A stretch of DNA of 64,000 bases from Epinephelus fuscoguttatus. Lineage: Eukaryota > Chordata > Actinopteri > Perciformes > Serranidae. The notes beneath the pieces were generated by a model that saw only the letters and a list, made by a program, of their open reading frames with translations, was not told the DNA's origin and did not search any database. The stretch spans positions 20,243,707 through 20,307,706 of the forward strand of contig NC_064770.1 in assembly GCF_011397635.1 (NCBI RefSeq). The letters run 5' to 3'. How positions within the stretch are numbered: the stretch's first letter is position 1; each line of letters begins with the position of its first letter. The position numbers were made by a program, and so were the translations under genes. This document shows, piece after piece, positions 39,093 to 61,383 of this stretch.

Positions 39093-42000
39093 CTAGTCCA
39101 TTGCCACGAGTATCCTCGTGGGTAGGATTTTCAGTGGATGCTCTTTGCAGGCAGTACAAAAGTAGGGAAAGGCTCTGGGTGTGATGACCTCTGTGAAGGT
39201 GTACAGAGGTGATCTCTCCCTAGGGTCGTAAAAGGTCACCTTGCCTCTGTCCATGTCTAAAACTATTCTTATCACTTCAGGCTTCCTAGTCATGTTCAGT
39301 GGCTCCCATGGTGCAGTGCAGGCCTTGTGCTCTCCGTTACGAAACCTTATAGTCCAGAATCCCTCAGCTGGTGTCAGCACGTGCTTGCCCTTCCTGTTGA
39401 TGGACTCGCTGGCTACACCCACCACCCAGTAGGTGTTCTCCCCGACCTCCACATCCCAGCTGTGGCGTCCAGTGGTATAACCCTCAGCAGCCAGCATCTC
39501 AGCACTGATGTCAAATCGTTCAGGGTTGTCCGGCAGCTTGAAAATCTGGGTAGAGTTCTGCACATGTGTGAGATCCTCTGAGATGACAAAGCAGCTGGCT
39601 GCAGTGTTTGGATCAATAATCACAGGATCTTGAGTGAAAAAACAAGATAAATGTTACTAAAGTGGCAAGGAAGGAAGTGGTCAATAAAGCCATGTTTCCA
39701 CCAGACACTTTCGGTATAGTACTTTTAGAACCCGTACATAAGCTGTATGGATATGTACCTAAACTCTAGATCTGTTTCACAATTCCACTGTAGACAGTGC
39801 TCTTAAATGTAGTCAGGATTTTTGTCACGGCACCACCAATGTCTCACTGTATTTGCTATTTGCAGGTGATGCAAAGGAACGTCTGCACCTTACTGATAGT
39901 ACGCAGAACGTGGTTGCACGCTGATGTTTTCAGAACCAAAAAGAGCATCCTTATGTGTTTGCAGTCTTTGTCACAATCGATGGGATATTTAAAAATTGCA
40001 GATTTGTGCATTACGTCCTTGTCAAGCAAAAGAGACAGTTCTCTCTCAGTGTTTCTAGCTCCACCTTTTAGTATCAGATCAACGTGCCAGGTACCTCAAC
40101 AGAGGGGTGACGAGTTAAAGGGACGGAAAGAAGGCATAAAACATGACTAGTTAGTGTTTGAGGAACTCACTATATTTGATGACTCTCTTCATCTTCTCCC
40201 ACACTTTATATTTCAGGGAGCCCAGGTGCTTGGCCACATCAATCAAAGCATCAGAGATCATCTCTGGATCAAGGGTAGGTCGCCAGGTTCTGAAAAGACA
40301 CTTAAGCAGTTAGTTGTTGAGACTTGTGTCTGTAGAGCTGTGATATCCTAAAAATACAATTAGCTCGGTCCCAGATGTGGCAATAACACTTACCTCTTAA
40401 TTGTTTCCTTGTAATTCTAAAAACAAAATCAAGGAGAACAGCTTAAGATGATTTCTGGCTATGATTTGTTATTTGAATTGTCTGAAGCAACAGTCTCATC
40501 TACCTTAAGAAATGGGATGTCTTGAGATTTCATCTCCTGCTCCACTAAGTTGATGGTGTTGGAGAGAGATGCTATTTCATCGTTCATCTCCTCAAACCTC
40601 TCAGTAACCATCAGATTCTTCTGGTCCTCGTCGGCCTTTAAAGCAGAAAGCCTGGCAGCCTCCTGCTCCTTCAGGAAACGGTGAAGGGCTTCAAATTCCT
40701 CCTTGATCTGTGTTTCGGTATGTTCAGCCTGGTGCTGGAAAGACATGTGATTGACGGGTAGTCATTACCTCCACACCGTGGCTCTGTAGTGCGTTCAAAG
40801 AAACATGATGTACTGATGGAACTGACTGTACCTTGACATGTTCTGCTATTTCCTCACAGACCGTTTTCGCCTTCTTGTACAGCTGCAACTTCTCTTTCAA
40901 AGGCAGCAGCGCGTTCTTCAGTTCCTCCTGAAAAGTCATTGACAGGGCATCAACACTTAAAAACAAGGTCAGCCTGGCAGACAGCCCAGCTGTCAGCACA
41001 ATGCATGGCTTTCAGCTGCCACATACTCGTTCCATGGCAGCATTCCATGTAAGCTGCACAATACAGCAGCGTCACATTAAAGGGACAAATCTATAGAGAG
41101 GGATCTAATGCCCTGATGACACGAGCAAAGCTGAGCTCCTGCAACTTGGAATCAAGACACAATATGGCAACCAATAAATTCACATCAGTGCTCAAGGTTT
41201 TCCCTTCTCGAGAGAAGGCCGATGAGGGCAGGAGTAGAATGAATGCGTCACAGAAACCTTGTGGGAATCGAGTTTCAGTCCTCTCGGGACCCGGATGGCG
41301 TCAGCAAACCAAAAATATAATTCTATTATTAGATTGTGAATGAACTCTGACAAACACCTTCACACACATCAGCTTATCAGGCTTAAAGGAGCACAAAGGT
41401 ATTAAGAACAAAACGGTGGCAAAGAAAACAAAGAATGGATTTTCAAAATGTTGACAAGCTGTAAATTTAAAAAAAAACGTCCAGGTACAAAGCACCACTT
41501 CTTTTTTATTGAATGATGAATCACATTTAAGATTAAATTTGGGAATTTGCAAAAAAAAAACAGTCAAGCTAATTAACTGTGGTTGTAAAATTAAGTGAAT
41601 CGCCTTCCCTTTTAAATTGTGAGGGCTCACTCATACAGTTGGGGGTATTGTTATATTGTTGACCTCAAACACTAATCTATAAAGACATCACATTCATCAT
41701 CCAAACAATGTGACAGATATTTTAATAGATGTTTCATCATCATTACTTCCAGCTGCCATCATCACAAGTGAAAGAAAGGAGTTCTTGATAATTTAAGATT
41801 TCCCAAACAGCTGCTGCTAAAGCTCAAATGAAATGTGTCACCCCTGTGAAGTACTGGGGTGACTAACCCTATAAGTTTAACTCACCTTACAGTCATGAGC
41901 ACCTTCTCTGATGGGATAGAGCCTGTGCCCAGTGTGTGCAGCTGCTTTCCCACATAAACCACAGATCGGCTCCAAGTCCTCCAAACAGAACAATGTGAGC

Positions 42001-42287
42001 TTTTCTCCATGCTCCCTACAAGCCTCTGGGTCATTCCAGCTTCTGTTCATCTTGAAGGATTCACAGGACCTCTCCAGCAGAGTGCTCACCACAATTTGAT
42101 CCATAGAGGAATGGCGCCAGCACAGAGGACAGTGGTGCGAACCCTCGCTGCCTTGTGTCTCCCAGCTGTCTTTCAGACAGGCTTTACAGAATCTGTGTCT
42201 ACAAGTGAGCACCACTGGCTGACTGAGAATATGTCCACAGATCGGACAGGAAAGGTCATCCTCAAGATGAGCACGCCGGGTGGTCAT
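39093..42287 (-). CDS. TRIM-family E3 ubiquitin ligase (RING, B-box, coiled coil, B30.2)
   Basis: Predicted E3 ubiquitin ligase of the fish TRIM35/TRIM39-like group. Minus-strand exons: 42287-41886, 40927-40832, 40734-40504, 40416-40394, 40289-40171, 39628-39093; phases join to give 468 aa. The RING is C14-x2-C17, C29-x-H31, C34-x2-C37, C53-x2-C56, complete for C3HC4. The B-box has CREHGE...CGLC...H...H within residues 87-125. Exons 2 and 3 encode the coiled coil. The fourth exon is only 23 nt, the size typical of this family's class IV genes. The last exon carries the PRY-SPRY (B30.2) with LDPNTA-like [18 protein letters not shown] and [13 protein letters not shown]. The B30.2 domain recognises a target protein, which cannot be told from sequence. 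Such genes multiply in fish and often act in antiviral or inflammatory control, so I give no symbol. A second candidate first exon lies upstream at 44,988-45,305. Confidence 0.88.
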
Positions 42288-44987
42288 TCTTTTTCACTGG
42301 GCTTTGATGAGAAGGCAGTATTCAAGGCCCCTCCCACATCACTGCAGGGATACCTCAACTTGACCTTAGGAATAAGTGTTGATACCTCAACCCCCTAAAG
42401 GCAGATCCCGTGTTATGCTGTGTTGTGTTGAGTATGCACATCGCGCTTTCTCAAATAAACACCACAGGAAAAAAAAAACCCAAACTGGCTTAACATGTAA
42501 GAGACTGTAGCTGTGCAGATCAGAGCAAATGGTAGCCGGGCCAACGCATGGATGACAAAAGGGAGAATGGTGTGCCATGTTCACCTCTAGGTTATTTGAG
42601 AAGTGTGTTGAAACAACCTGTCACACTGAAATGAAAGAGTTTGTGGAGAAACAATGTCCAAAAAAAGACTGGATGAAGCTATAAATAGAAGTAACTGATT
42701 TGGAAGTTATGTGGGTAAAGAAATATCCTCCTGCTGACCGGTGGAATAATTTCACAGTCAAGTTTAGCTTAGGGCAACAGCTTTTTAAGAACCAACACAT
42801 GGTTGTTTTTAAAATATCACAGAATCAAACCAGCTCTTTTAGTGTAAAACACAAGCAATGTGTTGCAGTTCTTAAGGACAAATAGAGGTTATTTCAGAGC
42901 ACAGCGAGCACACAATGGCACCGTCGTCTGGAGTATTAATTTGTTAATTTCCAAAGAATTTAACAGTAAGCTGACCTTGTTTGTGCTGTAATCCAGTACT
43001 TTGTTGTGGGTCTTAGTTTACTAGAAACAGCGCAGTGCCAAAGAGCAAGAGCGTGGAGACAGAAAGCGAATACAGTCCTGCCATTAGAAAGCACTACGTG
43101 CCAGAGCTGCTGCAACTCTGCAGGATAGTCCTTAAACCTCACACATGCTATGTTAGGATTCACAGTCAGCTTTAAACCATGCGGCTGGGAGAGTTATTAA
43201 AGAGTTCACTGTGTCTGTAACAACCATATGCACATGACTCGAGGCTTCATCCCAAATATTGACATTACCTTAGATAACAGTGTCAGTTTTAGAATAATGA
43301 AGTCAGTTAAATATATTTGTATGTTTACAACCCCCTAAAAGCCTCCTGACATATCAGACAGGCATAACGCATGTCATCATCACAGAAATTAGTGAGAGGG
43401 AAAGCTTTTTTTTTCACCCACCCACCCTGAGCAACCTCTGACCAAATAAGCACCAGTCTTGTTGGGATGCCAAACACACACACTAAGGCCTTGCTAGATT
43501 AGTAGTGGCTCTGCATGTAGTCGCTAGACAGATTTCATATGTGTGGTAGGTGGGTGTGAGTAGGTGAATTAATAGCTGTTTTAATCTTTAAATTGGTCAT
43601 TTGCTGAACTACAGTTTAGTAAACTGATTTTATTTTTAACCTTTATTTCACCAGGAGGTCCCTTGAGATTAAAATCTTTCCGAGGTAGGCCTGGTCAGTG
43701 GTGATCCAAGACTCTGGGGAGGCCCTGTCCTAACTATAGCCCCTTTTCCACAACTTGAAAACCCACAAATATCCACTGACATCTGGCTTTTTTATTTAAT
43801 TGAGCAGGTTACAATAGGTATTAACTCCTGGATCAAATTACTCAGTGGTGGTCACTAGTATTTATCGGCTCCAGCTCCAAACAGCTCTGTCTAGCAGCAT
43901 GGAAATACAACACCTGGGCAGACATGCTAATTTTAGCCTCTTTGGCGGCGTGACACAATGAGGGGCCGCCACAAAATACAGTCTCTATCCAAGCAGCACT
44001 TGAACGTCCGTCCATGCTGCTTTCCACTGTTTACTTACCTGTTTTCTGTCCCGCCTTTGACGTTGTGACACGCCAAAAAAATAATAAATAAAACACATAA
44101 ACCACAAACACACTTATCTGCTGCAGAGGCATGTACACAGCTCCAGGCAATGGGAAAGTAGTCTATCACCTATTTTTAGCAGCCTTAAAAATAACATACA
44201 CTGATTCTGGTGGAGAAAAAAGGTATATTGGTATCCAGCTGTCACAAGGTAGCTAGAAGGGGCCCCTTTTGAGGGTTTTTTTGGGGAAGTGGCAGTGCAC
44301 TCTGTTCCCTTAATGGAAGATTTAAGTTGTTTTAGTTCTCATTGCAAAATATGCCAATATGAGTGGCTATCAGAGGCCCCTTTTCACATTTTTTGGGGGG
44401 TGTCACAAATATTTGCCTGGTTTGCCTCTCCTGATGGTGCACCCCTGGCCTGGACCATTACAAAGTTACAAACATTATAAAATAGAGGATAATGAAAATG
44501 GTCAAGGACAACAGATATATAATCACACTCTTTGGTCACACAGTTTTTGTGAACATTCCCAGGGAGACAAAATCATTAAGTTGTAGTGTTTTTGAAGGAA
44601 ATCCTGGGTACCTGTTTCTAAATGGGAAAGATGAAATCAGCTGGGAAAAGACAGATTGCTTTGCTGCATGAGTTTACATGTTCACACACATCTGTGTGTG
44701 CATGCAGGCATCTCATACAGAGGCAAACATAGAAATAATAATGAGGAGGCTGACTGACATTTTACTACAGTGCATAGCCAGTATTGAAAGATAATACATA
44801 TTGTGTATGTCTGATATTCAAATTTCAACATTTTGCATCTTCATAACATCAGAGAATAATCACAGTCGACTCTAAAGATCAGTCTTCATGTTGAAGTACA
44901 TCACGTCTAGAAGTGAGCATCCACATATTATCAAATTCATGCTCAATACTTTTAAACAGAAAAGATATGCCTTTTTATTCAGCTTAC
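42288..44987. other. Region between two TRIM first exons
   Basis: I looked for coiled-coil or B30.2 exons that could complete the upstream RING exon and saw none. A LINE-tail-like stretch at 43,620-43,695 (CTTTATTTCACCAGGAGGTC) is a common fish repeat. The rest is AT-rich, without recognised features. Confidence 0.5.
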
Positions 44988-45305
44988 CTTATGATCACTG
45001 AATGCCTCCCTTATGGGATACACTATGTGATTCATATGCAGGCCTGTTCTGTGGCATGTAGAGCAGACGGGCTCCAGATCCGCCACACACAGGAGAAACA
45101 GTTGCTCCCCATGTGCTTCGCATGATTTATCTGGAAGCGGGGGTCTCTCTTTAACGCAAAAAGGACACTCTTTAACACGATGCTGTGTCCAGAAGTGCTC
45201 CAAGCAACTGTTGCAAAAGCTACGACCACAATTGATGCAGCAGAGCACCACTGAAGCCAGGAAGACCTCCCCGCACAAGGCGCAGCAGGAATCGTCAGTC
45301 TCCAT
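44988..45305 (-). CDS. Second TRIM RING/B-box exon (alternative first exon or partial paralogue)
   Basis: Single exon of 106 codons starting at ATG 45305 and ending in a perfect donor (AAG then GTAAGC) in phase 0, the same phase as the 42287-41886 exon. The RING is altered: C8-x2-C11, C26, then Arg28 where the zinc-binding His should be, C31-x2-C34, C47-x2-C50, plus two extra Cys at 22-23. The B-box looks complete (CEAHGE, CSTC, two His). The tail YPIREAFSDHK parallels [11 protein letters not shown] of the other exon. No coiled-coil or B30.2 exon lies between the two, so it could splice to the exons at 40,927 onward and make a second protein with the same C-terminus. It could equally be a leftover of a partial duplication. 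Confidence 0.6.
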
Positions 45306-46239
45306 CTGTGAAATTCAACGCAGCACTGATGGGTCTCTCTCTTCCAGGCAGCAGAGCCTATGTTCCTTCTGAATGTACAGTATGTACCATGAGTGTTCAA
45401 CTACATATAGTCCTGCAGCAGGAGAGAGAGCAGACCCAGCTCCTCTTGTTTCACCATAAATAAACATGTACATTAAAGGCAGGTTTTCAGCTCAGTTTCA
45501 AACCAACTAACCTGAAAGGGACATGAAAAATCTCCAAGGTAGAAAGAGATGTGAGCTATTTAATAAGCTTTACTCGTTCATTGATATCAATAGTCTTGTA
45601 ATATTGTGTTATTTCTATGTTAAAATTTGAGTTTACATTGTTTAAATGACTTTAAGTCTTTCAATGGCCACTTTCAGTTACTGTTAATACATTTTTTGGG
45701 CAAGTAAAGGCACTAAGTCTACAATGAAATACCTTCTTGTTAACACATTTATATAATTGTCAGTACAGTTAAATTTGGTATGGTCTATTTTAAATTTAAA
45801 GATGGATTTAAACAGGTAAAAGGCTCTTTTTTATTAGTCATATTATAAAGAAAATCCTCGTAAATGCAATTTATTACTATTCATTTGCTTCATCAGAATC
45901 CTGTCTGTATTACAAGCTCATAATGACAATAGAAACCTATAGAGAAAGTGAACTTAAAGCTTATAGAAGTAAAACTGATTTAATGGTGGACATTTGGAGC
46001 TTGATGTATAATGAGCCTAATTATAATAATAAATCTAGAGCAGAGTATCGACTAGACCATTTACAAAAGGCTGCAGGTTATAAAGGATTTAACACAGACA
46101 GGAATAAAGTCATTAGAAGTATCACTAATGTGCCTGCTGCTTTCTTCTCCCCTCGCACACACTTTTAACCAATATTTTTTTTATAGGATTTGTTTCATAT
46201 GTAGATATGAAAAAGGTACGTTTTAATCACATGGTCCAC
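45306..46239. other. Intergenic region upstream of the TRIM exons
   Basis: AT-rich. An 81-codon plus-strand frame at 45,923-46,168 has no recognisable similarity and no Kozak or splice support, so I do not call it a gene. A T8 run lies at about 46,171. Confidence 0.45.
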
Positions 46240-46245
46240 TTTATT
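46240..46245 (-). terminator. Candidate polyadenylation signal for VAC14
   Basis: TTTATT on the plus strand is AATAAA on the minus strand, about 820 bp after the VAC14 stop codon. Assigned by position only. Confidence 0.3.
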
Positions 46246-47061
46246 GATCTTCACATAGCAATGACAAAGGTGCGAGTTGTTTTAAGAGCACAAGACAAAC
46301 AGACACTTGTACATAGAGAAACACATATTAGCTGAAGAATATAAAAAGAAAGAAATGGAATTAAAAGGTCTGTAACATTATCGATCAGCTGCACTAATAA
46401 GTAATGGCAAGAGGTGCAACAACGTGGGCCTACCCGGAATTTATGCCAGAGTTCAGTCATCCATGGCTTCCAAAATTTAAAACCTCAGCTGAGCTGGGTC
46501 AATACTCGACACGTGAGTTTGGCTGACAAGAGATTAAGGCAACCCTGAACGCATGCTCTATTGTTACTGTTCAACAGCACACACCATGAAAATACTGTGT
46601 TTCACTCACCTGGATATTAAAAGACAGAAGTGCGCTATTTAACACTGAAATGCATGTCAGAATCACTTGAAACAATGTGGACATTTAATTTAGCTGGAAA
46701 TAATCTCAGCTGCTGACAGGGCATGATCTGGATATGGCCGTAATATCACCACCAGTAGTTATGATGTGTGAGATTGTATGTACATTCCTCAAATCTTCAC
46801 ATAAAGTAGTAACTGTTAATTAGCATGTGTGTAGTCTGAAGTGTATTAAATGTGTTGTTTTCTTATGTTACAGGACATTCTTAATTTACAAACAAATCAT
46901 TGTGTCATGATAATGTATATATATATCCAGTGCTCTGATGAGACAGTTTTTAATCATACTTAATTTTTGGCTTCAATATCTATATATTTTGTTCTTGTCC
47001 TTAACATTTTTCCTTCACCCTCCTCTCGCTGTCCTCAAGGGTCAGAGGAGGTGCAATGACT

Positions 47062-49422
47062 TCACATTAGCTTCCTGTCAGGGTGATCGGAGGCTCGTCC
47101 AGAGCGCTGGTGCCGGACCTCCAGGTGTTTACTCTGAACGCGGTCAAAGTGCTGGAGCAGCTCATTGTAATCCACCTGAGTATGAGAGGCACGCTTGGAG
47201 ACCACTTGCTTCTTTGAGTCCATGTATTTGGACTCATCCACAGTCCTCATGAGCTCCGGGTTGGGAACACACCGCAAACGGTGGGAGAGCAGCTGGAATG
47301 CCTGGCTCTGTGGCAGCAGCATCAGCAGGCCGTACAGCGCCTTAATCAGGTAAGGGTTGTTCTCCACATCCAGGAGCTGCAGGCGCAGGTAGGTAAAAAT
47401 GGGGCTCTCAATGAGCTGCACCAGCTTGTCGACCTCAATCAGGAAGTCAACCGTCACCTCCAGATCTCCAAACTTCTGGATGAGGTCATAGGCGTGTTTG
47501 TAGTTCTGTGTGAGGAAACAGAGCGACACAGTGGCCACGGGGTTGTGGCACCAGGAGCGATACAGGCAGCAAAACAAAGCGCAGCTCTCCTGAGTGCGGA
47601 GGTCCTTCAGCTGGTTGCGCAACTGAAAGAGCTCAGCCGAGGTGAGCAGGATGGTGTTGAGTGTTTGAACCATGGTGGAGGCAAATTTCAGGTCCTCCTC
47701 CTTCAGCAAGATGTCGGCCATGGAGTGGAAAATGTTCTCCGCGTGAAGCAACAGACAGAGCTGCCTGATGATGAAAGCGCCTCTGTTCTCCAGCAGCTTC
47801 CTCTCCAGACTGAAACGCTTCAGCAGGTTGATCATGAACTTGTAAAAATAGGAGTTCATACTGGGAGTGGACGGGGACGAGTCCACTACTTTGGGCTGCT
47901 GTCCTGGCTTTGCACTCTCTGGGACTTTGAGCTCCAGTTTGTTGTCTGTGCTGTCGCAGGGGCCCATTTGGTCCGTCTGGCCAGCAGGAGATGACGCTAT
48001 CTCAGCTAGCACCTCCAGATCTTTCAGTATCACCTCATCGGACTCATCAGACAGTGTTTTCAGCAGCATGGGAAACAGGCTGTCCGTATGGCGGAACATC
48101 TTGCGTGGTGTCTTGATGTAGAGGTGGTAGAGCCATTTGAGCACAGCTATGCGGGTCATCATGCCAGTGGAGGAGTCGTGTAGGTGTCTGTCCAACACCT
48201 GAACAATGCCGTCCAGGTCCAGAGTTACCTGAGGCCTGTCAGCATTCGCTGGAGCAAAGAAGCTGATATTACTTAAACCAACAGATTCTTGTGATGCATT
48301 CAGGATATCATTGCTGTCCACTTCAGTTTTAGGCTGATCCTCCTCCTTGGACGGCGACCCTGTGCTTCCACTTTTCTCCTCCTCCTCATCCTCATCATCT
48401 TCAGGGGTCACCAGCTTCATCAGACTGTGATTGCACGCACTGGCTGCTTCTTTGGTGTTCTTCTTTCTGTCGTCGTATGAGAGGCAAGGCAGCACTGCAG
48501 TCAGGATGCCAGAGGAGTAGGGGAGAACCACTCTGCCTGCAAGTTGTATAAACTCTCTCATCCAGGTCATAGCTGTCAGCTGGATCAGATCGTTTGTGAG
48601 TTTTGCTTCATCTGCAACCTGGCAGTGGATGACCAGGATGTTGGCCATCTCTGCAAACTTCACACTGGAGGGCGTCTTCTTAATCTCCTTTAAAAACTCT
48701 CCGAGCACCACTTCACATGTCCTGCGGATCTCCTTGCTGTTGTCTCCCAGGATCTGGAAGAGCCCATCCAGGATCTCGGGGAGGTAGTCTAACAAGTTGA
48801 TGTCTGGCACGGACTCCAGAACGTGGATCCAGGAGATAATAAACTGCCGAGCATATTGATTATTGGAGTAGATTCTCTCTCTGAGCAGGGGGACAAACGC
48901 CACTAAGTCAAACTTGTTACTCTCTGTCACAATGTCTTTCAGCAGTCTGTCCAAGAGTTCAGATCCGCTTTTCACATTGGGGTCTGGGTCTGCTGCGAGC
49001 TTGCTGAGCCCATCAAAGAGCAGGTTGAAGTGGGGAAGCACAGCTCCCCTGGCCACTTTGACTATGTTATACAGGGCCTCGCAGGCATAGTAGCGCAGGC
49101 GGCTGTCTGAGTCATTAAAGCACGTGAGCACAGGCTCAATAAGCTCCTTCAGATACAGACCTGAGTCCTTGCCGAGAGCGATGGAGCAGGCTGCCAGTCC
49201 AATGAGACCCCCCTTCCGGCTGTGGGGGTGCTGGGAAAGCGCAAACTCCGAGGCCAGGATCTGGATGACATGTCTGATTTGAGTAGAGTTGTTCTGAGCC
49301 ACAAACTCCCGCACTAGTTTCTCTATCTCCAGAGCTGCCACTTTCCTCTTCTCGTACAGTTTGTCATTCAGAGCCCTCACAATGTTGGGCGTCAGAGGTG
49401 AAAAGTCCTTTTCCGTGTTCAT
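47062..49422 (-). CDS. vac14: VAC14, scaffold of the PIKfyve complex, in one exon
   Basis: HEAT-repeat scaffold that holds PIKfyve (Fab1) and FIG4 together on endosomes and controls PI(3,5)P2 levels. One uninterrupted frame of 786 codons covers the whole protein, from [20 protein letters not shown] to [20 protein letters not shown]; human VAC14 is 782 aa. N-terminal HEAT repeats are strongly conserved, including L156, the residue changed in the mouse ingls mutant. An acidic tract (EDDEDEEEE, 341-349) lies in the variable linker. The C-terminal FIG4-binding and self-association half is intact ([40 protein letters not shown]). Human VAC14 has about 19 exons, so loss of every intron points to a retrogene or a retrocopy that replaced the parent. 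No disabling change is seen. It is divergent from the zinc-finger gene at 49,763, sharing a 340-bp gap. Confidence 0.95.
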
Positions 49423-49762
49423 GGTCGTAGCTGAGGTTTAACCGGATGTCCTCTACTGAAATATACGTTTAAACGCGTGAAAGCCGTCTGCATTTATGAT
49501 AATTTATTAAAGAAAACACATCGGTTCTTCTCGGGGAATCAGGAAGCTCTGTAATAAAACGCAGCTGACCGGTTACATCCGCCGGAAATACGTCACGGCT
49601 GCTACATTTATTTAGTTCCCGCTTTGCGAGAACCGTTAGCTCAAATTAGCATCATTAGCGACGCGCACAGCTAATGTATTTCACACTGCTTCGCTACCAC
49701 TGTGTTCACATTTGTTCCTTAGCTGTTGAAGAGGTTTTTTGTTGTCTCAGCCGGCTTTAACA
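49423..49762. promoter_or_regulatory. Divergent promoter between VAC14 and a zinc-finger gene
   Basis: Only 340 bp separate the two start codons on opposite strands. The gap holds an ETS-type CCGGAA (49582-49587) directly followed by a CRE-like TACGTCA (49589-49595), both common in TATA-less housekeeping promoters. No TATA box is evident. Bidirectional use is inferred. Confidence 0.55.
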
Positions 49763-52700
49763 ATGGCGAACCGCTTCTCTTTCCACTCACAGCTCTCCAC
49801 CATCATGGAGACGATGGCCAGGTCTGCCCTGAGTCAGATATGCAAGCTGGTGGATGAAGACACGGCGGAGCTCCGGCTGCGGTTGTCTCAGCTCCTGGTG
49901 GCTAACACCGCCCTGGCAGAGAAAGTGAACAGCCTGGAGTGCGAGCTGACCATTGTGAGAAGCGACTCCCCCAGACTGTGTAAAAGTTATCGCAGCGTAG
50001 GTGTACAAACTGTGTGCCACGGGGACGGGGACGCTTATGGTACTTTTATTGTTTCACCGTAACAAAGGCAGAGATCGGCTGCATGGTTTCTCGTGTTCAC
50101 TTTTCCGCTGATTTACTTTTGTTGTTTGACTCTTCCTCAGGGTCTGGGTCGCCCACCATAGAGGGGATCTTTGGGAAAGATTGGTGTATGAATCTGTGGA
50201 AAGACAGAGACCCGTGCAGTGTGGAGAGAGACTCACCGCAGTCCTCTGAGGTAGTAAGAAGAAGGTTTACACAGCTGTTAAATGTTTGATACCTATATAG
50301 CATTGAGCAATAAAACATGCTGCACAGCTGGTTATATGCAGGTCTGAAGGTGAAATATACAAACTGCAGAATGATGTTAATATTGCAACAGAAAAATGTG
50401 CTTATGCACAATGAAAAGCATGTGTAATATCGTTAGGGAGTTTAAATAGGCTCTCAAAAATGTCTAAACCATGTCATGTAGGTCATAAAACGTGTATATT
50501 CATATTATTATTAAAGGAATAATGGGTACAAAAGTCAGATACCACACTAAGGGATGCATCTAAGAAATATTGCTATCAGTAAAGGGGAACTTAGGGTCAA
50601 AGACAGTCCAAAAATATAAGTAAACATGAACATTTCTCTCCCAAATCCAAAAACTAGAGTGCTAAAACTCAAATTTGTGACATCAGGGTATAAAGTCTGG
50701 AGCTGCTCCACTGACAGTGACTGGTGACAGATGTTATAGATGTCACTGGGAGCACTCATGGGAATAATCTGTGTATATGGGTATGTTTCTGTGTCAGAGC
50801 TGAGGACATGACAACAGAATAAAGCTCATTCACGTGTAAAAAAGCAAACAAACATTTAGTTGGCCCACAAAATCAGGCTCCAGACTTTATACCATATGGC
50901 ATCGCAAGTTTGAGACGTACTTCTCTGGTTTCTGGCTTTAAGAGGAAATAGCTCCTGTTCACGAATATTGACATCAATAAATCATAAAAGTTAAGGAGAC
51001 ACAGTTGTCCCAAGAAGGAAAACATATTTCAGCCCAAAAGCTTTTACAGTAAGAGCTTCTCAGAGAGTTACTAGCAACCAGACCTGCTATTAAACCTCAT
51101 CATTGCATGCTCGCCTTGTCTGCACTGCTTTGTCTGTGTTCGTCAGACTGTCCGTCTGGTTTTACCTGTTCGTTGTCATGTAGCGTGATTTTAATGTGTA
51201 ATCCATGTTGTAACTGTTTGTGCTGAATGTCTCCTTAACATTCATCACTTTGCATTTTGCATGCCCTACTTTGCATGGTGCTTGCTTTTCTAACCTAAGC
51301 TTTTATTATTCTGTTAAGCTGTTCGTGTTTAGCTTTGTCCGGTTGCGATTTTACATGTTGTGTGTTTTATTTGTTGGCCAATTTTAACATCAGGCCGAAT
51401 GACAACAGTTGAAAATGAGCCTTTCTGTCTAACACTGGCACATTTGCAGTGATGTGGATTAATGTGCATTGTCTCTGAAAATGAATAAATAAAAGAAATA
51501 CTACAACTTTGTTTGCTAAAATGTCTAGTAGTTATATAATTCATTCATTCATTATTTATTTTTGTCATGCCAAATCGTGCACGTACAAAGCATGTGGAAA
51601 AAGAAACAAACTAAAAGCAAAACCAAATCATCCGAAATTAACCTCTACATGAGAAACCACCAAATATCTTCAGATAATCTCGATAAAGAGCTTCTTTCTC
51701 TTCTCCCTGTTCAGATAACAGACTAATTTATGTTTGATGTGTGAACAGCCATCTCAGTCTTGTGCTTTTTCCATATTTACAAAATCAGTATCTATTTTGA
51801 TCTTACTAAGCAAAGCATTTTGCAGTTCACACTGAAAATGAACAGTAGAAAATAAAATGGCACTCATTTTCTGTATCGTTCAGACACCACAATGGACACA
51901 TCTGCTTTTCTTCTTCTAGATTAACACACTGTCCAGTTTCAAAAGTCAAAGGTGACATACCAGATCTCAGCTGAGCACTTAGAGATCTTTGCTTTTAAGA
52001 CAAATTATGTATAACATAAGTCTCTGCACCATATTCAGTCTTTGTTTAGTCTGTATGCCATCAGCCCACTGTCCTTTGTCTTTGGCAAACACGGATTCTC
52101 TAAACAAACCAATTTTGGACCTTTTTTTATTTAACACTCAATCTAATAATAGTTATTTTACATTTTTCGTTTATTGCTGCTGACAGGAAGAATTAATAAT
52201 CAAAATTGCTGCTTATTTTTTTGCTGATTGACTACTCGACTGATTATTTCAGTTCTTGTCAGATTCAGCATCGCTGTCACAGAAGATGCTGCTGTATTTA
52301 ATGACAGTTTGGCATTTGGACTTTTTCCATTTTACAGTTCACGGCGACACTGTCCAACCACATTACTGTGACTGAGATCAAAGAGGAGGATGTGGAGGAC
52401 GCTACCAGCAGCTGCCAGCAGGAAGCACTTAGTACAGAAGGTGAGAGAGTGAAGGGGCGTTGGCGTGAGGGAACACAAAGCAGCCTGCAGCTTTAGATGT
52501 TTTTTTTTTTTGTTTTTGAGTGTTTGACTTTGTATTTTTATGCAGCAGAACATAAAGAAAGCATGGCTGAGGAACCAGAGCAACCGTCAGTGGGTATCTC
52601 AGCCGACGGCAGCACTTGCAGCCTGCCGTTTGATCCGGATGCAGAGCCGGCTGTGTGTGCAGGCGGTATGGAAGAAGAGTCCATGCAGCTGATTTGCATC

Positions 52701-53411
52701 AGTGACTCAGAGGAAGCCTTCAGCTCTCATATCATTCCAATAGAGGAGGAGGATGATGATGACGATGACAATGTAGAGTTTGTTACAGAAAGTCAGCAAG
52801 AGCCGACGATGAACGCTGAATGTGGGCCCAGTAATGAAGAACAGCACACTTTACCTGCAGACAACTCAGACAACAGCACAGCTCCAGATGAACACACGGG
52901 TGACGACTTTAATATGCTTCAGGTAGAAAGCACAAGAGCCCCGGACAATGGGAAATTCAGTTGTGAAATATGTGGCAGGACGTTCTTCCACAAAGGCACC
53001 CTAACACACCACATGAAGTCCCACAAGTCCAACTTTTGCAACATTTGTAAGCAGCACTTCCCTCGCCGGCACAAGTTCAACACGCACACCTGCGTGCCCC
53101 CGGCTCCCTCTCAGCCGGTCAGCAGATCATGCGAGCTGTGTGGGAAGACCTTTGCGAATCCATCAGCTCTGAGGATTCACTACCTCGTCCACACGGGAGA
53201 GAAACCACACAGGTGCAGCTTCTGTGGGAAAGGGTTCACCCAGAAAGGCAATCTGAAATGTCACCTTCGTATCCATACTGGAGAGAGACCGTTCTGCTGT
53301 GTCAAATGTGGGAAGACATTCACGCAAAAGGTCAACCTCAACCATCACTTAATGTCGCACAGAAAACAAGAGTTCCCCAAGGCTAGGAGACATCAACCTG
53401 TCAGGGACTGA
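49763..53411 (+). CDS. C2H2 zinc-finger protein, five fingers, GKDWC-motif family
   Basis: Likely DNA-binding nuclear regulator, 451 aa. Exons: 49763-50039, 50141-50250, 52338-52440, 52546-53411. Exon 1 encodes an N-terminal helical or coiled-coil segment (FHSQLSTIMETMARSAL, LVDEDTAELRLRLSQL). Exon 2 carries IEGIFGKDWCMNLWKD. Exon 3 (103 nt) carries EIKEED, which fits a SUMO-attachment consensus. Exon 4 has an acidic run (EEEDDDDDDN) and the fingers: FSCEICGRTF, NFCNICKQHF (ending H-x-C, unusual), SCELCGKTF, HRCSFCGKGF and FCCVKCGKTF, with HTGEKPH and HTGERPF linkers between the last three. The exon 4 acceptor is a NAGNAG (CAGCAG), allowing one-residue variation. The first ATG of the exon was chosen. 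Two neighbours share this exon plan. Targets cannot be inferred. Confidence 0.85.
50510..50960. repeat. Interspersed repeat in zinc-finger intron 2
   Basis: Text such as AAAAACTAGAGTGCTAAAA, CTCCAGACTTTATACC and TTCTCTGGTTTCTGGC recurs at 63,684-63,890 in an intron of another zinc-finger gene, in the same plus-strand orientation although the genes are opposed. It is therefore a mobile repeat rather than a trace of gene duplication. Class unknown. Confidence 0.55.
51080..51510 (+). repeat. Possible LINE 3' end
   Basis: Non-coding stretch ending GAATAAATAAAAGAAATAC, with a style resembling fish LINE 3' tails. No reverse transcriptase frame is visible, so this is a weak call. Confidence 0.25.
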
Positions 53412-53617
53412 CAAGAACTATAGCTTTATTTATCTGAATGCGTCATGTGGTACTCATGTTAGTGTAGGGGCATTTAATGCCATGTTTGTATCAAGTCGTA
53501 GTCTGTACTGTAGTGCTAGAAAAAAAACAAGATGTCCTGTTTTTGCCAGTTAATTTAACCATTAAGTACTTAGATGTTGTCTCTGTCCTTATAATGAAAC
53601 ACATGAATGTTCTTTTT

Positions 53618-53623
53618 ATTAAA
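53618..53623 (+). terminator. Candidate polyadenylation signal ATTAAA
   Basis: A common AATAAA variant about 210 bp after the zinc-finger stop codon at 53,411. Confidence 0.35.
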
Positions 53624-53944
53624 CTTTTATTAGATAGAACTCTCCTTTTAAAGTGTGAGTTATTCGTTGTCTAATCTATACTGAAGTTGTCTTCACCTTG
53701 AGGAATCAGTTTTACAGCTGAGTTTACATGTTCAACTTTGACAATCAGAACGGGGCTCCATAAGGGGCATGCAGGTCTGAGTGAAAACGGGGGAAAAAAA
53801 ATCAACAGCACAAGATTTCTTTCTTGGGCAGCCATAATTCACTAGGCTAGGTCAGTGTGGTGCATTCAAGGGAATCATATTATTACAGACAAAATTAGCC
53901 ATGACATTAAACCCACTTACAGGTGAAGTGAGTAACATTGATTG

Positions 53945-54536
53945 TTGCAATACAATGTTCTGCTGGGCAACCTTGAGGTCCTCACATTCATTTGGATGAC
54001 CCGCCACATACTTAAACACCATGGCAGACCCAAGTATACCCCGTCATGGCAACAGCACTCCCCGATGACCGAAAAAGTGCTCACGCATGCCACGAGGAAT
54101 GTGACAAAGAGCTTAAGGTGTCAACCAGGCTTCCAGATTCCCCACATCCAAATCTGATTGAGCATCTGCGGGACATGCCGGTACCCCAGAGGTCATGCGT
54201 CATGTGGCCTCCTTAGGTATCTGGCACCAGGGTGTCCTGGGGGTTGCAAGTTAGGGCCTCCATGGATCGACTTTTTCCGGCACGTCCCACAGATGCTAGT
54301 TTGTGTTGGGGTCTGGGGTATTTGGAGGTCAGTTTGATGCCTTGAGCTCTTTGTCATGTTCCTGAGCAGTTTTTGAGGTGTGGCATAGCACGCTGTCATG
54401 CTCGGGGGTGGGGGGTACTGCCATCTGGGAGGGCGTGTACTTGGCCCGCAATGGTATTTGGGTGGGTGGTGCGTGTCAAGTTGCATCCACATGAATGCCA
54501 GGGCCCAAGGTTTCCCAGCAGGACATTACCAATGTC
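53945..54536. mobile_element. Fold-back pair of decayed Tc1/mariner transposase fragments
   Basis: The two halves are imperfect inverted copies. For example TGCTGGGCAACCTTG on the left faces CAAGGTTTCCCAGCA on the right, and AGCATCTGCGGGACATGCCGG-like text faces its reverse complement near 54,292. Each half resembles the C-terminal part of a Tc1-like transposase: PHPNLIEHLRD on the plus strand corresponds to the family's SPDLNPIEHLWD. Both halves are broken DNA-transposon remains. Confidence 0.6.
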
Positions 54537-55131
54537 ATTCACTCACAGCAGTTTTGATGTTACGGCTAATCGGTGGAAGTGCTCAGTAGAAGTAACTGCT
54601 CTGTTCAAGTGTGATGAAAGTTCATTACATAATAAAATATGTGACTTCTTAAAACAGAAATTAAAACAAAAAAATAATGAACATTTGGCTTGACTGTACA
54701 CTGACAACATTTCTTTCTACAATTATGATGCAGCCACACAAATACATTTAGTTTTAACAGTAACACCATTTCTGGATCTCATTTGAGGATTATGTAACCA
54801 ACACACATCAATATTTCATAACAGTTGTGTTTCACAAACAGACAGAGCTGCCCTCTTTCTGTTTAATTAAACGACAACAGATTAGGCATGACATGTGAAA
54901 TACAAAGCAGAGGTGAGAGCTGGGTAATGAAGCAAACAGAGGAGGTTGTTTTACTTCCACACTGTTGTGAAGAGGTAGATTTGAAGGTTTATGCTACATG
55001 TGTGCAAACAGTGGAACAGTAGTCCGACTTATTTTGGCATTATTCGACACAGGCCTTTGGTGGCATGAAATATGACACTGAGGTATGTATTATCTGTTCG
55101 GCAGCCGTACGACAACATGCGATGGACACCA

Positions 55132-56022
55132 CAGGATTCCCACGGTCACTGAAAACCTGAAAAAGTCATGGAATTTTACAATCTCATTTTCCAGGTTTGG
55201 GAGTGTCATGGATCTTGAAACTTTTGAAAAACTCCTAGAATATTGTGTGTAAAATAAATTAATTGTTACAGTAATCTTTCATGGATAACCCTCCATGTAA
55301 TGAAGCATGACGGCAACTTTATCTTCTGTAGCTGTTAACATAAAGCAGCTCTATGTCAATGTTTACCATCACATATGTTTCTTCCTTATTTTCCTAACAC
55401 TCTGCCTCCCCTTCCTCATGTGCTGGCTAGCTGGAATTATGTGCGACTAAAGTTTGAATCTGATATGTAGAGTGAGTAAGAGGCAAATAATGTGACAGAG
55501 TTGGAGGAAAAAAGGAAGTGCTGCACTGGGTTAAAAGCTGTGTCGTTAGAATAAAATAAAATCAGGTGCTCTTCAAGGATGGGCAAAGAGTCACTTGAAG
55601 ACACGCATTTCTGTCAGTGTGGTTTTTTGTCTAGTGGGGCTAAACCAATATATCACCTGACCTGTGTCACATGACCCTCACATGTTTTACACCCTGATGA
55701 GAACTCTCTAGTCGAAACTTGTGGTTATTCATGTACTAATAAAAGATTTTGAACTACAGTCAGAGGGCCTCAGGTGCATTTTTGGACTGGCTGCCTGTAC
55801 TATGGACTTCTACACTGAGTGTTTATCTTTAATGTGATGCTGTTATTTAACATGTGGGATCATGAGTCCCAAATTTTCTATATCTACTACTTAGAATTTG
55901 TACTGCGTTTTTCAAAAAGGTGCCTTGTTCATGTTCTACATTGTGAACAGTCGTGGAAATTTCATCATGGGTGCTAGAAAAGTCATAAAAAGTTTTGAAA
56001 TTTTGTCCATGTGGGAACCCTG
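55132..56022. mobile_element. Non-autonomous element with CAGGGTTCCCAC-type ends
   Basis: The left end CAGGATTCCCACGG and the right end, reversed, CAGGGTTCCCACATGG form terminal inverted repeats, with AAAGTCATGGAATTTTAC and AAAACTTTTTATGACTTTTC as inner ends. I recognise this as a widespread fish hAT-type family. No clear target duplication or transposase frame is seen. Confidence 0.6.
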
Positions 56023-56493
56023 GATACAATGGAAGTATTTTTGCCTTAGTTTCAATGAGCACTTCACATTACATGGAAGCAGCAAATAAGTCTCATCAGA
56101 TCCGTGACTCTTATCTATCACAACATGTCGTGAAGTTGAGTTTAAAGGCTTGTTGAGGGCATCATAAATTCAACAATGACCTGCCCCCGCAACCTGTCAA
56201 ATAAACTGAATCCCACCAAATCTAATTCTACATTAGAGAGGACAGATATTCTTTGTTCTCTTGTTTGGCTGCAGCAACATTTCTATCAGCAGTAAAGCTA
56301 AAAACACGTCAAACAAACTAATATTTTTACAGCAGCACCGTTAACCATACAGGCTATAACACAAGCCTTCCTTTGATGCAGACGGAGTATTTCAAATCTA
56401 CAGTTTCCATCCACATTTCCTATAGACGTGCTGGCACATTTTGAGCCAACAAGAGTTCATTGAAGTTCAGATCAGACAGCATGGTTCGATCTC

Positions 56494-59170
56494 TCAGTTG
56501 AAACACTGGTGGTGATTTAAACCGTACTTGTATGCATAACATTTCCCACAGTCCACACAGCTGTAAGGCTTCTCCCCGGTGTGCGTTCGAAGATGTATGT
56601 TCAGAGAGCTTTTCTGGGAGAAACTTTTGCCACAGTCCGGACAGCTGTAAGGCTTCTCCCCCGAGTGAACGCGCTGGTGCAGCTTCAGGTACGTCTTCTG
56701 AGCAAAGCGCTTCCCGCACACCGTGCAGCTGAACGGCTTCTCGCCGGAGTGTCGCCGGATGTGGACTTTTAAACTGCTCAGATAGTTGAATATCTTCCCG
56801 CAGAATAAGCACTCGAACCGTTTGGCAGGTTTCATGGGTCTTGGCTGAACGTTGGGTTCTTTGGTTGCGTTCATGTGGATATTGTTCGTGTAGTCTGAGT
56901 ATTCTGTGGTGGCCGAGGAAGAATTGGTGTTGTCCACCATTGTGCTCATTGTTGCATCGTCGATCAGCTTGTCCATAATGGTTGGCTGCGTGCGCTGTTG
57001 TGTTTGAGTGTCAGCCGTCATGGGGTAGTTGTTTAATTCACCTGAGTGAAGCTGCAGCTCATCAACAGATCTGTGAAGCATGCTGTCCTCGTCAAAGATT
57101 CCAGCCACTGTCAAATGAGAATAAATGCAGTTAAATGACACAAACTATCAAAAACAGCAACTTGTTTTTTTATATTTAATCCAAACATACCTTTTCTGTT
57201 ATCTGTGAGCCTCATCTGCTGGCCAATGGGATCATCATACGTCTCCTCCTTAACAAAGATGAGATCAGGTTCTCGCTCCATTAGGTCTATTGCCTGCCAA
57301 AAAAGAAATTAAAAAGGAATAAATACAATTAGATAAAAAATATTTTGAAAATTAAGACCTCACAATTTTAAAGTTAAGACAATTTAATTAATTTTTAAGG
57401 GCTTGATGTATCTGTACACCAAAGCTAACTAGCCTTCTATGACTAATACCCAACAGTAACATTATGTTGTGGCAGCCTAATAACCAGACTGTCTGCCCAC
57501 ATTTCAGCCCGACTATAGCCTGCCAACAAGACATGTGACAAACAGCTTTGAACACAACGGTCATCTCAGCTCAATGAGGAAATGATTTCATTGGAAAACA
57601 CAAACCCAATTGGTTTATGAGTCACTGACCTGTGGCACCATGCTCGTCATCGCAGCAGGCTCCACTGCCTCTTTCCTTTGAGGCGGGAGTTTGTCCTCTC
57701 TCCACAGATCCATGCACCAGTCCTTTCCGAAAACGCCATCAATGGCTGGAGCAGGCTGCTGCTGCTGTTCTGGAGGAAGAAGCAGATGTGAAATGGGGAC
57801 GTCTGTGGAGGAAATATTCACCGAGATGAAATACAGGAAGTGTACATATATCAGACACTGAAATGTAATGCTTTTAAATATCGCTGTAAGATGATTTTTA
57901 AGCATATTTAAGACAGACTTTTGGACAAATTACCTTACTGAAAAAGACCTGAACACAAGCTATATCCACAAAGCCTTCACTCTCTGCTAAACAACCTTGT
58001 TCTGCTTTAGAAAACGGCACAATTAAAACAACCAAAGCTCTAACAGAATAATGGCCAAGCATCAGAAGGAAGGAACCACTGAATTCATCAAAAATAAAAA
58101 AAAATAGAAAATTAAAAAAATAAATAAATTAAAGAGTAAAAATTAAAATAAAATCAAAAGTAACAATAACAATAATGCAGACAGAGAATAATATAAAATC
58201 TTCTCAGAACTTTTTTTTTTTTTTTTTTTTGTAATTACTAATTTTACAGAAATTTACCGCAGTTGTTGCGTTTACTATTTGGGGTAACTGCGCAAATTAT
58301 TAGTTGTTCTGTGCTATTATTCTTATGCATCGACTATTATTTGAAAAATCCATAATATATGTAATTTACTCAGGGGTCATTAGCCTACTAAATTATAGAA
58401 GAGGGGTCACTTGGAAATATTAGTAAATACACTGGAAATTTGTAAATGACAGGGCTAAGTGAAAATGTAATGTAATAGTTTTAAGATTTGTAACATCAGA
58501 AATGTGAACTTTGACACAGAAGAGCTTGACTCATTTGACAAAAAGTAAATTGTTAAAATTATAAATAAGTTACATTTTCTGTGGCAATCAAGACCTCTCA
58601 AATTCAATTTTAGGAGTATTTAATTACTTTTAAGGCTTAATATTTATTATAAGACACTTTAAGGACCCGCAGACACAATGATGTGCAACTTAACACACCA
58701 TTAATGGGTTTTCCCCCCATAAAATCTGAATATAACCATGCAGATCTGCACTAGGACATAACTGAGTTGAGGTGTCAGTAGTCTACACCACAGCTAACTA
58801 GCCTGCTATGACTAACACCTCACAGTGACGTTATGCAGCCTCGTAACCAGTCTAGTGACCAGCCTAGTGACCAGGCTGTGTGACCATGTCTGGGCCCGTC
58901 CTGACCTGATGGGTGTCGGCTGCTGCTGACACTGTTGACATGTGCAGGGTAAGTCTGCGCCTCCCTCGCTGCTCTCAGCTGGACCTCCAGTAAGTAGCAC
59001 CTCTTCTTCAGCGCCTCGTTCTCGGTCTTGTGCAGCGATATCTCGGTGTGAAGGACGGAGGAGCACTCGTCAGCCAGGTTGCCTATTTCCACCAGAGCCG
59101 CCTTCGTTAGCTTGTCCAGCACGGCGGCTAACTGCGCCCGGAAACTTCGGTTCGTCGTGTCGCACATCAT
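56494..59170 (-). CDS. C2H2 zinc-finger protein, three fingers plus one degenerate, GKDWC family
   Basis: Likely nuclear DNA-binding regulator, 373 aa. Minus-strand exons: 59170-58906, 57769-57630, 57293-57191, 57107-56494; phases join. Exon 1 encodes a helical segment (SFRAQLAAVLDKLTKAAL, then a Leu-rich heptad run to residue 70). Exon 2 has a short Gln run and IDGVFGKDWCMDLWRED. Exon 3 is 103 nt with FVKEET, again a SUMO-type motif. Exon 4 has a Ser/Thr/Asn-rich linker, then fingers FECLFCGKIF, FSCTVCGKRF and YSCPDCGKSF with HSGEKPF/HSGEKPY/HTGEKPY linkers. A last finger, YSCVDCGKCYAYKYGLNHHQ, ends CFN-stop and lacks its final zinc ligand. Two adjacent ATGs open the frame; the first was used. 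It is paralogous to the genes at 49,763 and 61,384. Confidence 0.85.
58211..58230. repeat. T20 homopolymer in zinc-finger intron 1
   Basis: A run of 20 T (poly-A on the gene's strand) follows about 150 bp of A-rich low-complexity sequence. It may be the tail of a retroposed insertion whose body I cannot identify. Confidence 0.7.
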
Positions 59171-61329
59171 CTCGACGGGGAGGCTGAATAATTCGAAATT
59201 TTGGCAAGATTCCCGGCGTAGCAGTGTTGCCCCTTAATCAAATGTGTGGTACAGTTGTGCCGCAAGGGATTGTGGGAAACGGCATATGCACTCGAGGCAA
59301 AGTTTACGAGGAGCACCTGAAGGCAGCAAAATGGAAAAGAGATTACAAAAGGGTTTTTTTTACTTTTGTGAGAATTACATAGATAGGTTTAATCATGTCA
59401 ATACTATTGTGAATTTTATCTTTAACAATAAAATAATTAGACTCTTCGTTGGCTCAGACCAGCCTTGTAGTTTATTCACAAACGCGAGTGTTCACTGCCC
59501 CCTAGTGGTCACAGGCAGGAACTGCAACACTACATTAAATTTGTAACACGATTACCATCAGTATAACTATTATAAATATCAATATGTACACCTCATTATG
59601 AGTTCATAACAGCAGTACTGACAACAACTTAATTAATAAAGCTTTTTTTTAACTATCAGTTTTGTTTTATGGAGACCACTCTTCATGTTAGACCTGATTT
59701 AGCATCATGAGTGTTCACTGTCCTCCAGTGGTCACAACTGAGGAGCTGCAATGTCCATTTAAATTCAGTAATTATTGATCAATACTGTACGCGCAGCTTT
59801 TTATTATCATAAGTGTTGAGGAGATGAGACCTACATCTAATTAATCTAGGAGTTTCACTACTTTTTGCAGTAGCTTGCTGCAGCTACATTCCTTTTTGCA
59901 TAGTGATTCAAGTAGTTTACCATTTTGTGTAGTTAAAGACTGAAACTACAAACAATTTTGGGCAGCATGGAAAGAGAGGATTGTTTATTTTTATTTTACC
60001 ATTGCTTCTCTAATGTAATTCAACCCCCTTTGACCCTTTGATGAGCCCCACACCCCTTGTCTTTCATCCTGATTTCTGTGAAGGCATGCAGACAATGTTT
60101 AGTTTTTATAACTAAAGTTAAATGTATTAGTCATCACTTAGTCAGAAGAAGGCCAGCCATTAGGGAATATGGGCAGGGGGACAATCGTTTTCAATTTATG
60201 TAATTACAACACTATTAAGGAACCTCAGTATGCAGACATAATTTTGAAAAATGGCAATGTTCCCTTTTCCCTCATCAACATTTAGCGTATCTTTGGATAC
60301 AAAACTAAAGCTAGCATAACATTCCCATGAAAGGTGGGGTTATTTTACTTTTTTATTTCATTTCATTTTATTTTGTGTTATTTGGTGCACTTTTTGCAAT
60401 AAACTCAAATGGCATCAAGTGGCTTTTTTTGCTGGCATGCAATCTTTTGTGTATCATATTTTGCTATAATTTTGTATGACATGTACATTGTAAATTTGAT
60501 CACTTTTTAGTAGTTGTGGTAGTTTGAACTACTTTTTTTCTGAGTAGCTTTAGTAAACCAAACTAGATTTCTCCCTTGGGCAGCTTTGCTGTCGTTCAGC
60601 TTCTTCCAGTGTGAAGTAATTGGTAGCTTTCTCTCAAAGCAGCTTCCCTAACACTGATTATCATCATGATTATTATTAGCATTATTACAGAGACCAGTCT
60701 AACCTTCTAGTGCTGTTTACACAAGCGGGGATACAGATAAGATGGAATACTAGGACATGTGATGAATATAAAAAAGATTTAAAGTAGTCATCAACCGTAT
60801 CAGGTCCCAACAACATGGTCTCAGTAATTGGAGGTGTCTGAGGCCAAACCATTTTATTTTGGCAGGTCACACGTTTCAAGTGATGTGCCTGTAACCCAAG
60901 ATCCAAGTCAAGTAAGGCCAGGCTACAGGCACACCCAAGTTCTACGTATTGATTCAAAGCTTTGCGACATCTACTTTACAAAATATGTTTGGCTGGGATT
61001 TACTGATGTTCGCAGAAACATAAATATGGTACTTTTCTGTGCTCCAAGTGAGGATTCAGCCTCTGTTGACTCCTAGGCAGCTTCACTGTGGTGGCATTTT
61101 TGGTATTGTGGTTACTGATTATCCACTTGTTTTCAAGCCTCTACATTACTGCAATTTGAGCTGCTTTTTTTTTTTAGTAATGATGGCTATCAGTAAAACA
61201 AGAGCTATTTATTAACTGGATCAGTCATCAAAGTCAGTTCACATGAAGTGTTGTGCCTCATAATGTAACCTATGTGTGTATTGAGGTGTAAAGCAGGCGA
61301 TACACACTGGCATCTGGAGCAAAGATAAG
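59171..61329. other. Intergenic region between two zinc-finger genes
   Basis: The first 100 bp upstream of 59,170 should contain the promoter of the middle zinc-finger gene. After that I see no gene. Two related segments, each with a CTCF-like core, lie at about 59,485-59,512 and 59,709-59,735. The rest is AT-rich without recognised elements. Confidence 0.45.
59496..59508 (-). promoter_or_regulatory. CTCF-like binding core
   Basis: On the minus strand the sequence is CCACTAGGGGGCA, a close match to the CTCF core consensus (CCASYAGRKGGCR). The surrounding 27 bp recur, with a weaker core, at 59,709-59,735. Function is inferred from the motif only. Confidence 0.35.
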
Positions 61330-61335
61330 TTTATT
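61330..61335 (-). terminator. Polyadenylation signal for the right-hand zinc-finger gene
   Basis: TTTATT on the plus strand reads AATAAA on the minus strand, about 50 bp after the stop codon at 61,384. Confidence 0.5.
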
Positions 61336-61383
61336 ATGCACAAAATATTTCAAACAGCAGTAGGTTACATTTGACTGGCTGTT

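What the first reader, a model, noticed from the sequence alone, without database searches (positions are those of the whole stretch)
47062..49422. Full-length VAC14 encoded by a single exon: a probable functional retrogene
The sequence shows one open frame of 786 codons spanning the whole VAC14 protein, start to stop, with no intron. Vertebrate VAC14 is normally split into about 19 exons (family knowledge). Intact length and conserved ends argue that selection keeps it working. VAC14 is an essential scaffold for PI(3,5)P2 synthesis, so either this fish has two VAC14 genes or a retrocopy has replaced the parent. I see no clear poly-A remnant or target duplication nearby, which suggests an old event.
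Basis: partly seen in the sequence, partly recalled or inferred. Interest (0 to 1): 0.78.

Follow-up and report, generated by a model that had tools for sequence, protein, structure and literature searches.

The report
Intronless fish VAC14 replaced its parent
This fish seems to carry only one copy of VAC14, a gene for a scaffold that cells need to keep their lysosomes in order, and that copy was probably made from an RNA message, landed on another chromosome and took over when the original split gene was lost.

Summary
Four searches of the own 1.047 Gb assembly (protein, two Pfam families, DNA) each returned only this ORF, while control searches found split genes in pieces, though not every piece. 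If a parent as diverged as human existed, about 16 of 19 exon-sized pieces should have scored (human sequence recalled). VAC14's ancestral neighbours il34, hydin, cog4 and MTSS2-like genes lie on contigs C4 and C2; this gene is on C19. So this is best read as an "orphan" retrogene: spliced mRNA copied into a new place, head-to-head with a zinc-finger gene in a CpG-rich stretch, then loss of the parent. No poly-A tail or target duplication was found. Age, spread among fishes, transcription and dN/dS could not be tested: no other fish genome was available. The kind is known (HAP40, teleost hatching enzymes); I found no report of it for VAC14.

The parts
47062..49422 (-). vac14 coding sequence in one exon, 786 aa
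48934..49221 (-). Fab1/PIKfyve-binding region (Pfam Vac14_Fab1_bd, aa 68-163)
47266..47802 (-). FIG4-binding region (Pfam Vac14_Fig4_bd, aa 541-719)
49423..49762 (.). 340-base gap between the vac14 start codon and the likely start codon of a divergent zinc-finger gene; inside a CpG-rich stretch (o/e 0.99 for 49251-49750, 0.89 for 49501-50000, 0.65 for 49751-50250); putative bidirectional promoter
   Evidence: for CpG values; for the divergent ORF; start codon of the neighbour and promoter role inferred
49763..50059 (+). probable first coding exon of the divergent C2H2 zinc-finger gene (no Pfam hit by itself; assigned by eye; its splice end is not known)
52497..53411 (+). ORF with C2H2 zinc fingers, taken as a later exon of the divergent gene (link to 49763 inferred)
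46240..46245 (-). AATAAA, candidate polyadenylation signal about 0.8 kb after the stop codon
   Evidence: role inferred

Best explanation
It is an orphan retrogene. A spliced vac14 mRNA was reverse-transcribed and inserted on what is now contig C19, just upstream of a zinc-finger gene and facing away from it. It is probably transcribed from the CpG-rich stretch between the two genes (captured from the neighbour, or brought along). The intron-containing parent, which should have lain in the il34/MTSS2/hydin/cog4 neighbourhood now on C4 and C2, was lost. The single-exon gene is now the only source of VAC14, the HEAT-repeat scaffold that holds PIKfyve and FIG4 together to make and turn over PI(3,5)P2 on endosomes and lysosomes. 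Shown here: intact full-length ORF, the only copy found in the assembly, a place away from the ancestral neighbours, a divergent neighbour in a CpG-rich stretch. Inferred: reverse transcription, loss of the parent, promoter use, protein function.
For: Intact ORF with both VAC14 domains. Protein search, two Pfam families and a DNA search of the own genome: 1 match each, always this ORF. Controls with the same tool on intron-split genes: il34 3 matches, cog4 3 matches, hydin 1 match, IMD proteins 32 matches, Syja_N proteins 14 matches, and in protein mode a 145-aa window exon gave itself plus 10 other places at 33-69% identity. Estimated power: 16 of 19 pieces detectable (recalled human sequence, equal pieces). 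Ancestral neighbours elsewhere: hydin C4:12.7 Mb, il34 C4:7.3 Mb, MTSS-type exons C4:16.5 and C2:9.7 Mb, cog4 C2:25.9 Mb. Adjacency of IL34, MTSS1L, VAC14 and COG4 in human, and of COG4, MTSS1L and VAC14 in ghost shark, is from PMC7717901 (passages). Window neighbours are an adhesion GPCR, a rhodopsin-family GPCR, an AMP-binding (slc27a1-like) gene, TRIM-type genes and zinc fingers. If neutral, 5% divergence would leave a stop-free frame with P about 0.02, and 10% with P about 0.0005.
Against: No poly-A remnant or target duplication. The controls were not complete: hydin matched only profile positions 12-74 of 196, cog4 left positions 1-55 and 117-182 of 291 unmatched, so the search can miss single exons. 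No remnant of the parent was found, so its former site is inferred, not seen: 200 kb around hydin gave a best tblastn E of 0.43, repeat-like on inspection; a 10-kb stretch at the C4 MTSS first exon, with about 7 kb upstream of it, gave 0.36; 20 kb at cog4 gave 0.26 and 10 kb at and after il34 gave 0.28. MTSS-type exons also occur on C17 and C8 and IMD exons on C1 were not read; which are mtss2 was judged by eye, not by a tree. No RNA or dN/dS. The multi-exon state of other vertebrates' VAC14 is recalled, not tested.
Confidence: 0.83

Rival explanations
1. Intron loss in place: the normal gene had already moved to this place, and later lost all its introns by recombination with its own cDNA.
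For: No retroposition scars; the neighbours of vac14 in other teleosts could not be looked at here.
Against: Needs a separate relocation plus loss of every intron; the ancestral neighbours tested (hydin, il34, cog4, MTSS2-like) are on other contigs. One retroposition explains both facts.
Confidence: 0.08
2. Retrocopy beside a surviving parent that is missing from the assembly or too fragmented to be found.
For: The assembly may be incomplete (26 contigs; the tool reports no completeness); only the best candidates are scored, and the controls on hydin and cog4 left parts of their profiles unmatched.
Against: Controls find short exons at weak similarity; a parent as diverged as human should give about 16 of 19 pieces; four searches found none.
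Confidence: 0.05
3. Recent, neutral retrocopy that is intact only because it is young.
For: At 1% neutral divergence a stop-free frame is expected with P 0.47, and more often below that (indels not counted).
Against: It is the only vac14 found; no poly-A tail remains.
Confidence: 0.03
4. Assembly artefact (cDNA contamination joined into the genome).
For: An intron-free full coding sequence.
Against: It lies inside a 41 Mb contig between other genes, beside a CpG-rich stretch, and no second genomic vac14 was found.
Confidence: 0.01

Closest known systems
HAP40/F8A in amniotes (PMC7725122, passages seen)
   Same: Single-exon gene thought to come from a multi-exon one by retroposition, at a non-syntenic place, with the parent lost; its protein is a partner in a complex.
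Intronless hatching-enzyme genes of teleosts (PMC6385490, abstract and Discussion seen)
   Same: Fish genes that lost all introns and changed place; retrocopy proposed.
   Different: Those kept their own promoter sequence and moved several times; here the promoter's origin is unknown.
Human 'orphan' retrogenes such as CHMP1B (PMC5408686, passages seen)
   Same: Retrogene functionally replaces a lost or dead parent.
   Different: Human genes; VAC14 is not named in the passages seen.
Teleost intronless rhodopsin (PMC11461388, search listing and start of abstract only)
   Same: Retroduplicated intronless gene serving a main function in teleosts.
   Different: An intron-containing copy survives as exo-rhodopsin.

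Membership tests
VAC14 protein family | Fab1/PIKfyve-binding and C-terminal FIG4-binding regions, complete and in order | tested here: met
   profiles 2-97/97 and 1-179/179
VAC14 protein family | Full-length collinear protein | tested here: met
   630 of 774 aligned residues identical to a human sequence recalled from memory
Orphan retrogene | Coding sequence free of introns | tested here: met
Orphan retrogene | Orthologues in other species have introns | not tested
   about 19 exons in human is recalled; no other vertebrate sequence was available
Orphan retrogene | New genomic location relative to the ancestral neighbours | tested here: met
   ancestral order from PMC7717901 (passages); hydin adjacency recalled; MTSS2 identity by eye
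Orphan retrogene | Parent gene absent | tested here: met
   (one match each, this ORF), with controls 17, 24, 32, 49, 53, 71 (incomplete for hydin and cog4) and power estimate 74; absence is from this assembly only
Orphan retrogene | Poly-A tract and target-site duplication | tested here: not met
   marks of fresh retrocopies that decay, so not required of old ones
Orphan retrogene | Transcribed and under purifying selection | not testable with these tools
   no RNA-seq and no related genomes

The most novel reading that the evidence does not exclude
An ancient, clade-wide and unreported replacement of the only VAC14 gene by a retrogene in a group of teleosts: one reverse-transcription event turned a gene of about 19 exons into a single exon, gave it the promoter of a divergent zinc-finger gene, and the whole clade has since run PI(3,5)P2 synthesis from this copy.
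Probability: 0.5. Interest if true: 0.55.

Novelty: new member of a known kind. Interest (0 to 1): 0.47.

Why it matters
Replacement of a conserved single-copy gene by its own retrocopy is a clean natural test of whether introns and the original regulatory setting are needed. Loss of VAC14 lowers PI(3,5)P2 and leads to lysosomal disorder with neurodegeneration (PMC10328317, passages). Retrocopy surveys that start from an annotated parental gene, as the VGP pipeline does (PMC13320880, passages), would not be expected to report such orphan cases (inference). If a model fish shares it, the gene can be removed and tested directly.

Tried and rejected
Target-site duplication: the longest exact match found between the two flanks (13 bases, at 45941 and 49918) was rejected because the 49918 copy lies inside the probable coding exon of the zinc-finger gene, 155 bases past its likely start codon. 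Other short two-copy repeats in 44500-51500 are imperfect and none was convincing. Poly-A remnant: only an 8-A run at 46182, 58 bases past the end of the AATAAA; not convincing. Parent relic near hydin: tblastn E 0.43 at C4:12629534; the frame around it looks repeat-like by eye and shows nothing else of VAC14 (best E on the reversed 200 kb was 4.1). Idea that a Syja_N gene on C12 was also intronless: by eye it is synaptojanin-like and its exons are separate. IMD exons on C19 (18.9 and 26.2 Mb) might have been mtss2 beside the window: by eye they read as BAIAP2 type, whereas C4, C2, C17 and C8 read as MTSS type. Relatives in the bacterial and viral collections: none (not expected there). No solved structure matched by sequence. 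No RNA family in 44000-54000. Literature: vac14 with intronless, 0 papers; 0 of the 15 papers listed (111 held at least 3 terms) and 0 of the 10 listed (77 held at least 3 terms) contain vac14; 0 mentions in the main texts of PMC8207432 and PMC3136929. 44 papers hold vac14 and zebrafish (20 listed); of these I opened only PMC3080878, whose one passage says nothing on introns. Supplementary tables could not be read, so a listing there is not excluded.

Full report
Observation. The ORF is real and sits exactly where stated, on the minus strand: 47062-49422, 786 codons, ATG to TGA, no internal stop. Both VAC14 signature regions are there: Fab1-binding, aa 68-163, E 6.1e-46; FIG4-binding, aa 541-719, E 2.3e-80. 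Against human VAC14 recalled from memory, 630 of 774 aligned residues are identical. By region: 301 of 329 (aa 1-335), 22 of 62 (336-397), 73 of 83 (398-480), 17 of 38 (481-518), 186 of 207 (519-725), 31 of 55 (726-786), so change is concentrated in the linkers and the tail. Chance is excluded: the longest open stretch in 300 simulated sequences was 256 codons.

Only copy. The assembly holding the window has 1,046,998,120 bases in 26 contigs; the window is C19:20243707-20307706. Searches with the whole protein (E up to 0.001; 2 candidates scored), with PF11916 (E up to 1; 11 candidates) and PF12755 (E up to 1; 6 candidates), and with the DNA (E up to 1; 1 candidate) each returned 1 match, this ORF. 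PF12755 is not a specific family: it also rang in 2 of 14 control genomes of microbes, yet it rang nowhere else here.

Controls. The same tool recovers split genes in pieces: il34 as 3 matches, cog4 as 3, IMD proteins as 32, Syja_N proteins as 14, and a 145-aa exon of the slc27a1-like window gene as 11 matches, itself plus 10 others at 33-69% identity. Recovery is not complete: hydin gave 1 match, profile positions 12-74 of 196, and cog4 left positions 1-55 and 117-182 of 291 unmatched. Cutting the recalled human protein into 19 equal pieces, 16 of 19 would reach E 0.001 in a genome of this size by BLAST score; the 3 misses fall in or near the variable linkers. These are not true exons, and the first look of the genome tool is not modelled, so this is an estimate. 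A parent that escapes with every exon in four searches is unlikely.

Derived place. [quoted passage not shown] in the Australian ghost shark FUK, COG4, SF3B3, MTSS1L and VAC14 lie together; in the coelacanth MTSS1L and VAC14 lie elsewhere on the chromosome (PMC7717901, passages). HYDIN beside VAC14 in human is recalled. In this fish hydin is at C4:12.7 Mb, il34 at C4:7.3 Mb, cog4 at C2:25.9 Mb. IMD exons lie on C17, C4, C2, C8, C20, C19 and C1. Those of C4, C2, C17 and C8 read as MTSS type by eye, with C4 and C2 most like each other and taken as mtss2; those of C19 (18.9 and 26.2 Mb) and C20 (36.6 Mb) read as BAIAP2 type; C1 and the other exons were not read. The window's own genes are an adhesion GPCR (GPS, 7tm_2), a rhodopsin-family GPCR, an AMP-binding slc27a1-like gene, TRIM-type genes and C2H2 zinc fingers (names beyond Pfam are by eye), a set that recalls human 19p13 rather than 16q22 (recalled). 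Intron-free plus relocated is the expected outcome of a retroposition.

Scars and remnants. No poly-A tract and no acceptable target duplication were found. No relic of the parent was seen in 200 kb around hydin (best E 0.43), 20 kb at cog4 (0.26) and 10 kb at and after il34 (0.28), or a 10-kb stretch with about 7 kb upstream of the C4 MTSS first exon (0.36); each E is for that stretch alone. An old event fits, but this is absence of evidence.

How it probably works. The start codons of vac14 and, most likely, of a divergent zinc-finger gene are 340 bases apart (the exon at 49763 is assigned by eye) in a stretch where CpG observed/expected reaches 0.99, against 0.13-0.57 in the windows outside 49251-50250. 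The simplest model is a shared promoter. Whether the retrocopy captured the neighbour's promoter or brought its own is open; the authors of the hatching-enzyme study propose the second for those genes and cite CpG islands in active human retrogenes (PMC6385490, Discussion). The protein should act as VAC14 does elsewhere, a scaffold for PIKFYVE and FIG4 (PMC10328317, passages). That FIG4 and PIKfyve are present here was not tested one by one; the Syja_N matches include several families.

Selection. Without related genomes dN/dS cannot be computed. In this coding sequence 3.2% of random changes (transitions weighted 2) create a stop, so 5% neutral divergence would leave a stop-free frame with P about 0.02 and 10% with P about 0.0005, indels not counted. 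An intact frame thus means a young copy or selection; the absence of a parent points to selection (inference).

Novelty. The kind is known: HAP40 in amniotes, orphan retrogenes in human, hatching enzymes in teleosts. I found no report of a VAC14 case, within an open-access library and without supplementary files. Public annotation may already show it as a one-exon gene; that could not be checked. Interest is moderate: a conserved scaffold gene tied to human disease apparently replaced by its own retrocopy, age and spread unknown.

Noticed in passing
window 9556-18646: Adhesion GPCR of the CD97/ADGRE kind; two EGF-like exons (about 12.5-12.7 and 13.2-13.4 kb, 657 bases apart) are near-identical, flanks included, with similar ones at 11.9 and 13.6 kb, suggesting recent tandem exon duplication (name by eye).
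   Followed up: no
window 39096-45314: TRIM-type exons on the minus strand (PRY-SPRY, RING/B-box, and another B-box exon at 44982-45314) directly downstream of vac14.
   Followed up: no
window 49763-62085: Group of C2H2 zinc-finger ORFs in mixed orientation; the first gene probably starts 340 bases from the vac14 start codon.
   Followed up: partly
G000:C2 and C4: MTSS2-like exons occur on both C2 and C4, with il34 and hydin on C4 and cog4 on C2, as would be expected of two chromosomes from the teleost genome duplication (inference).
   Followed up: partly
L038 (C4:16529201-16529614, -): Probable first coding exon of an MTSS gene, read by eye; no vac14 trace in the about 7 kb upstream.
   Followed up: yes
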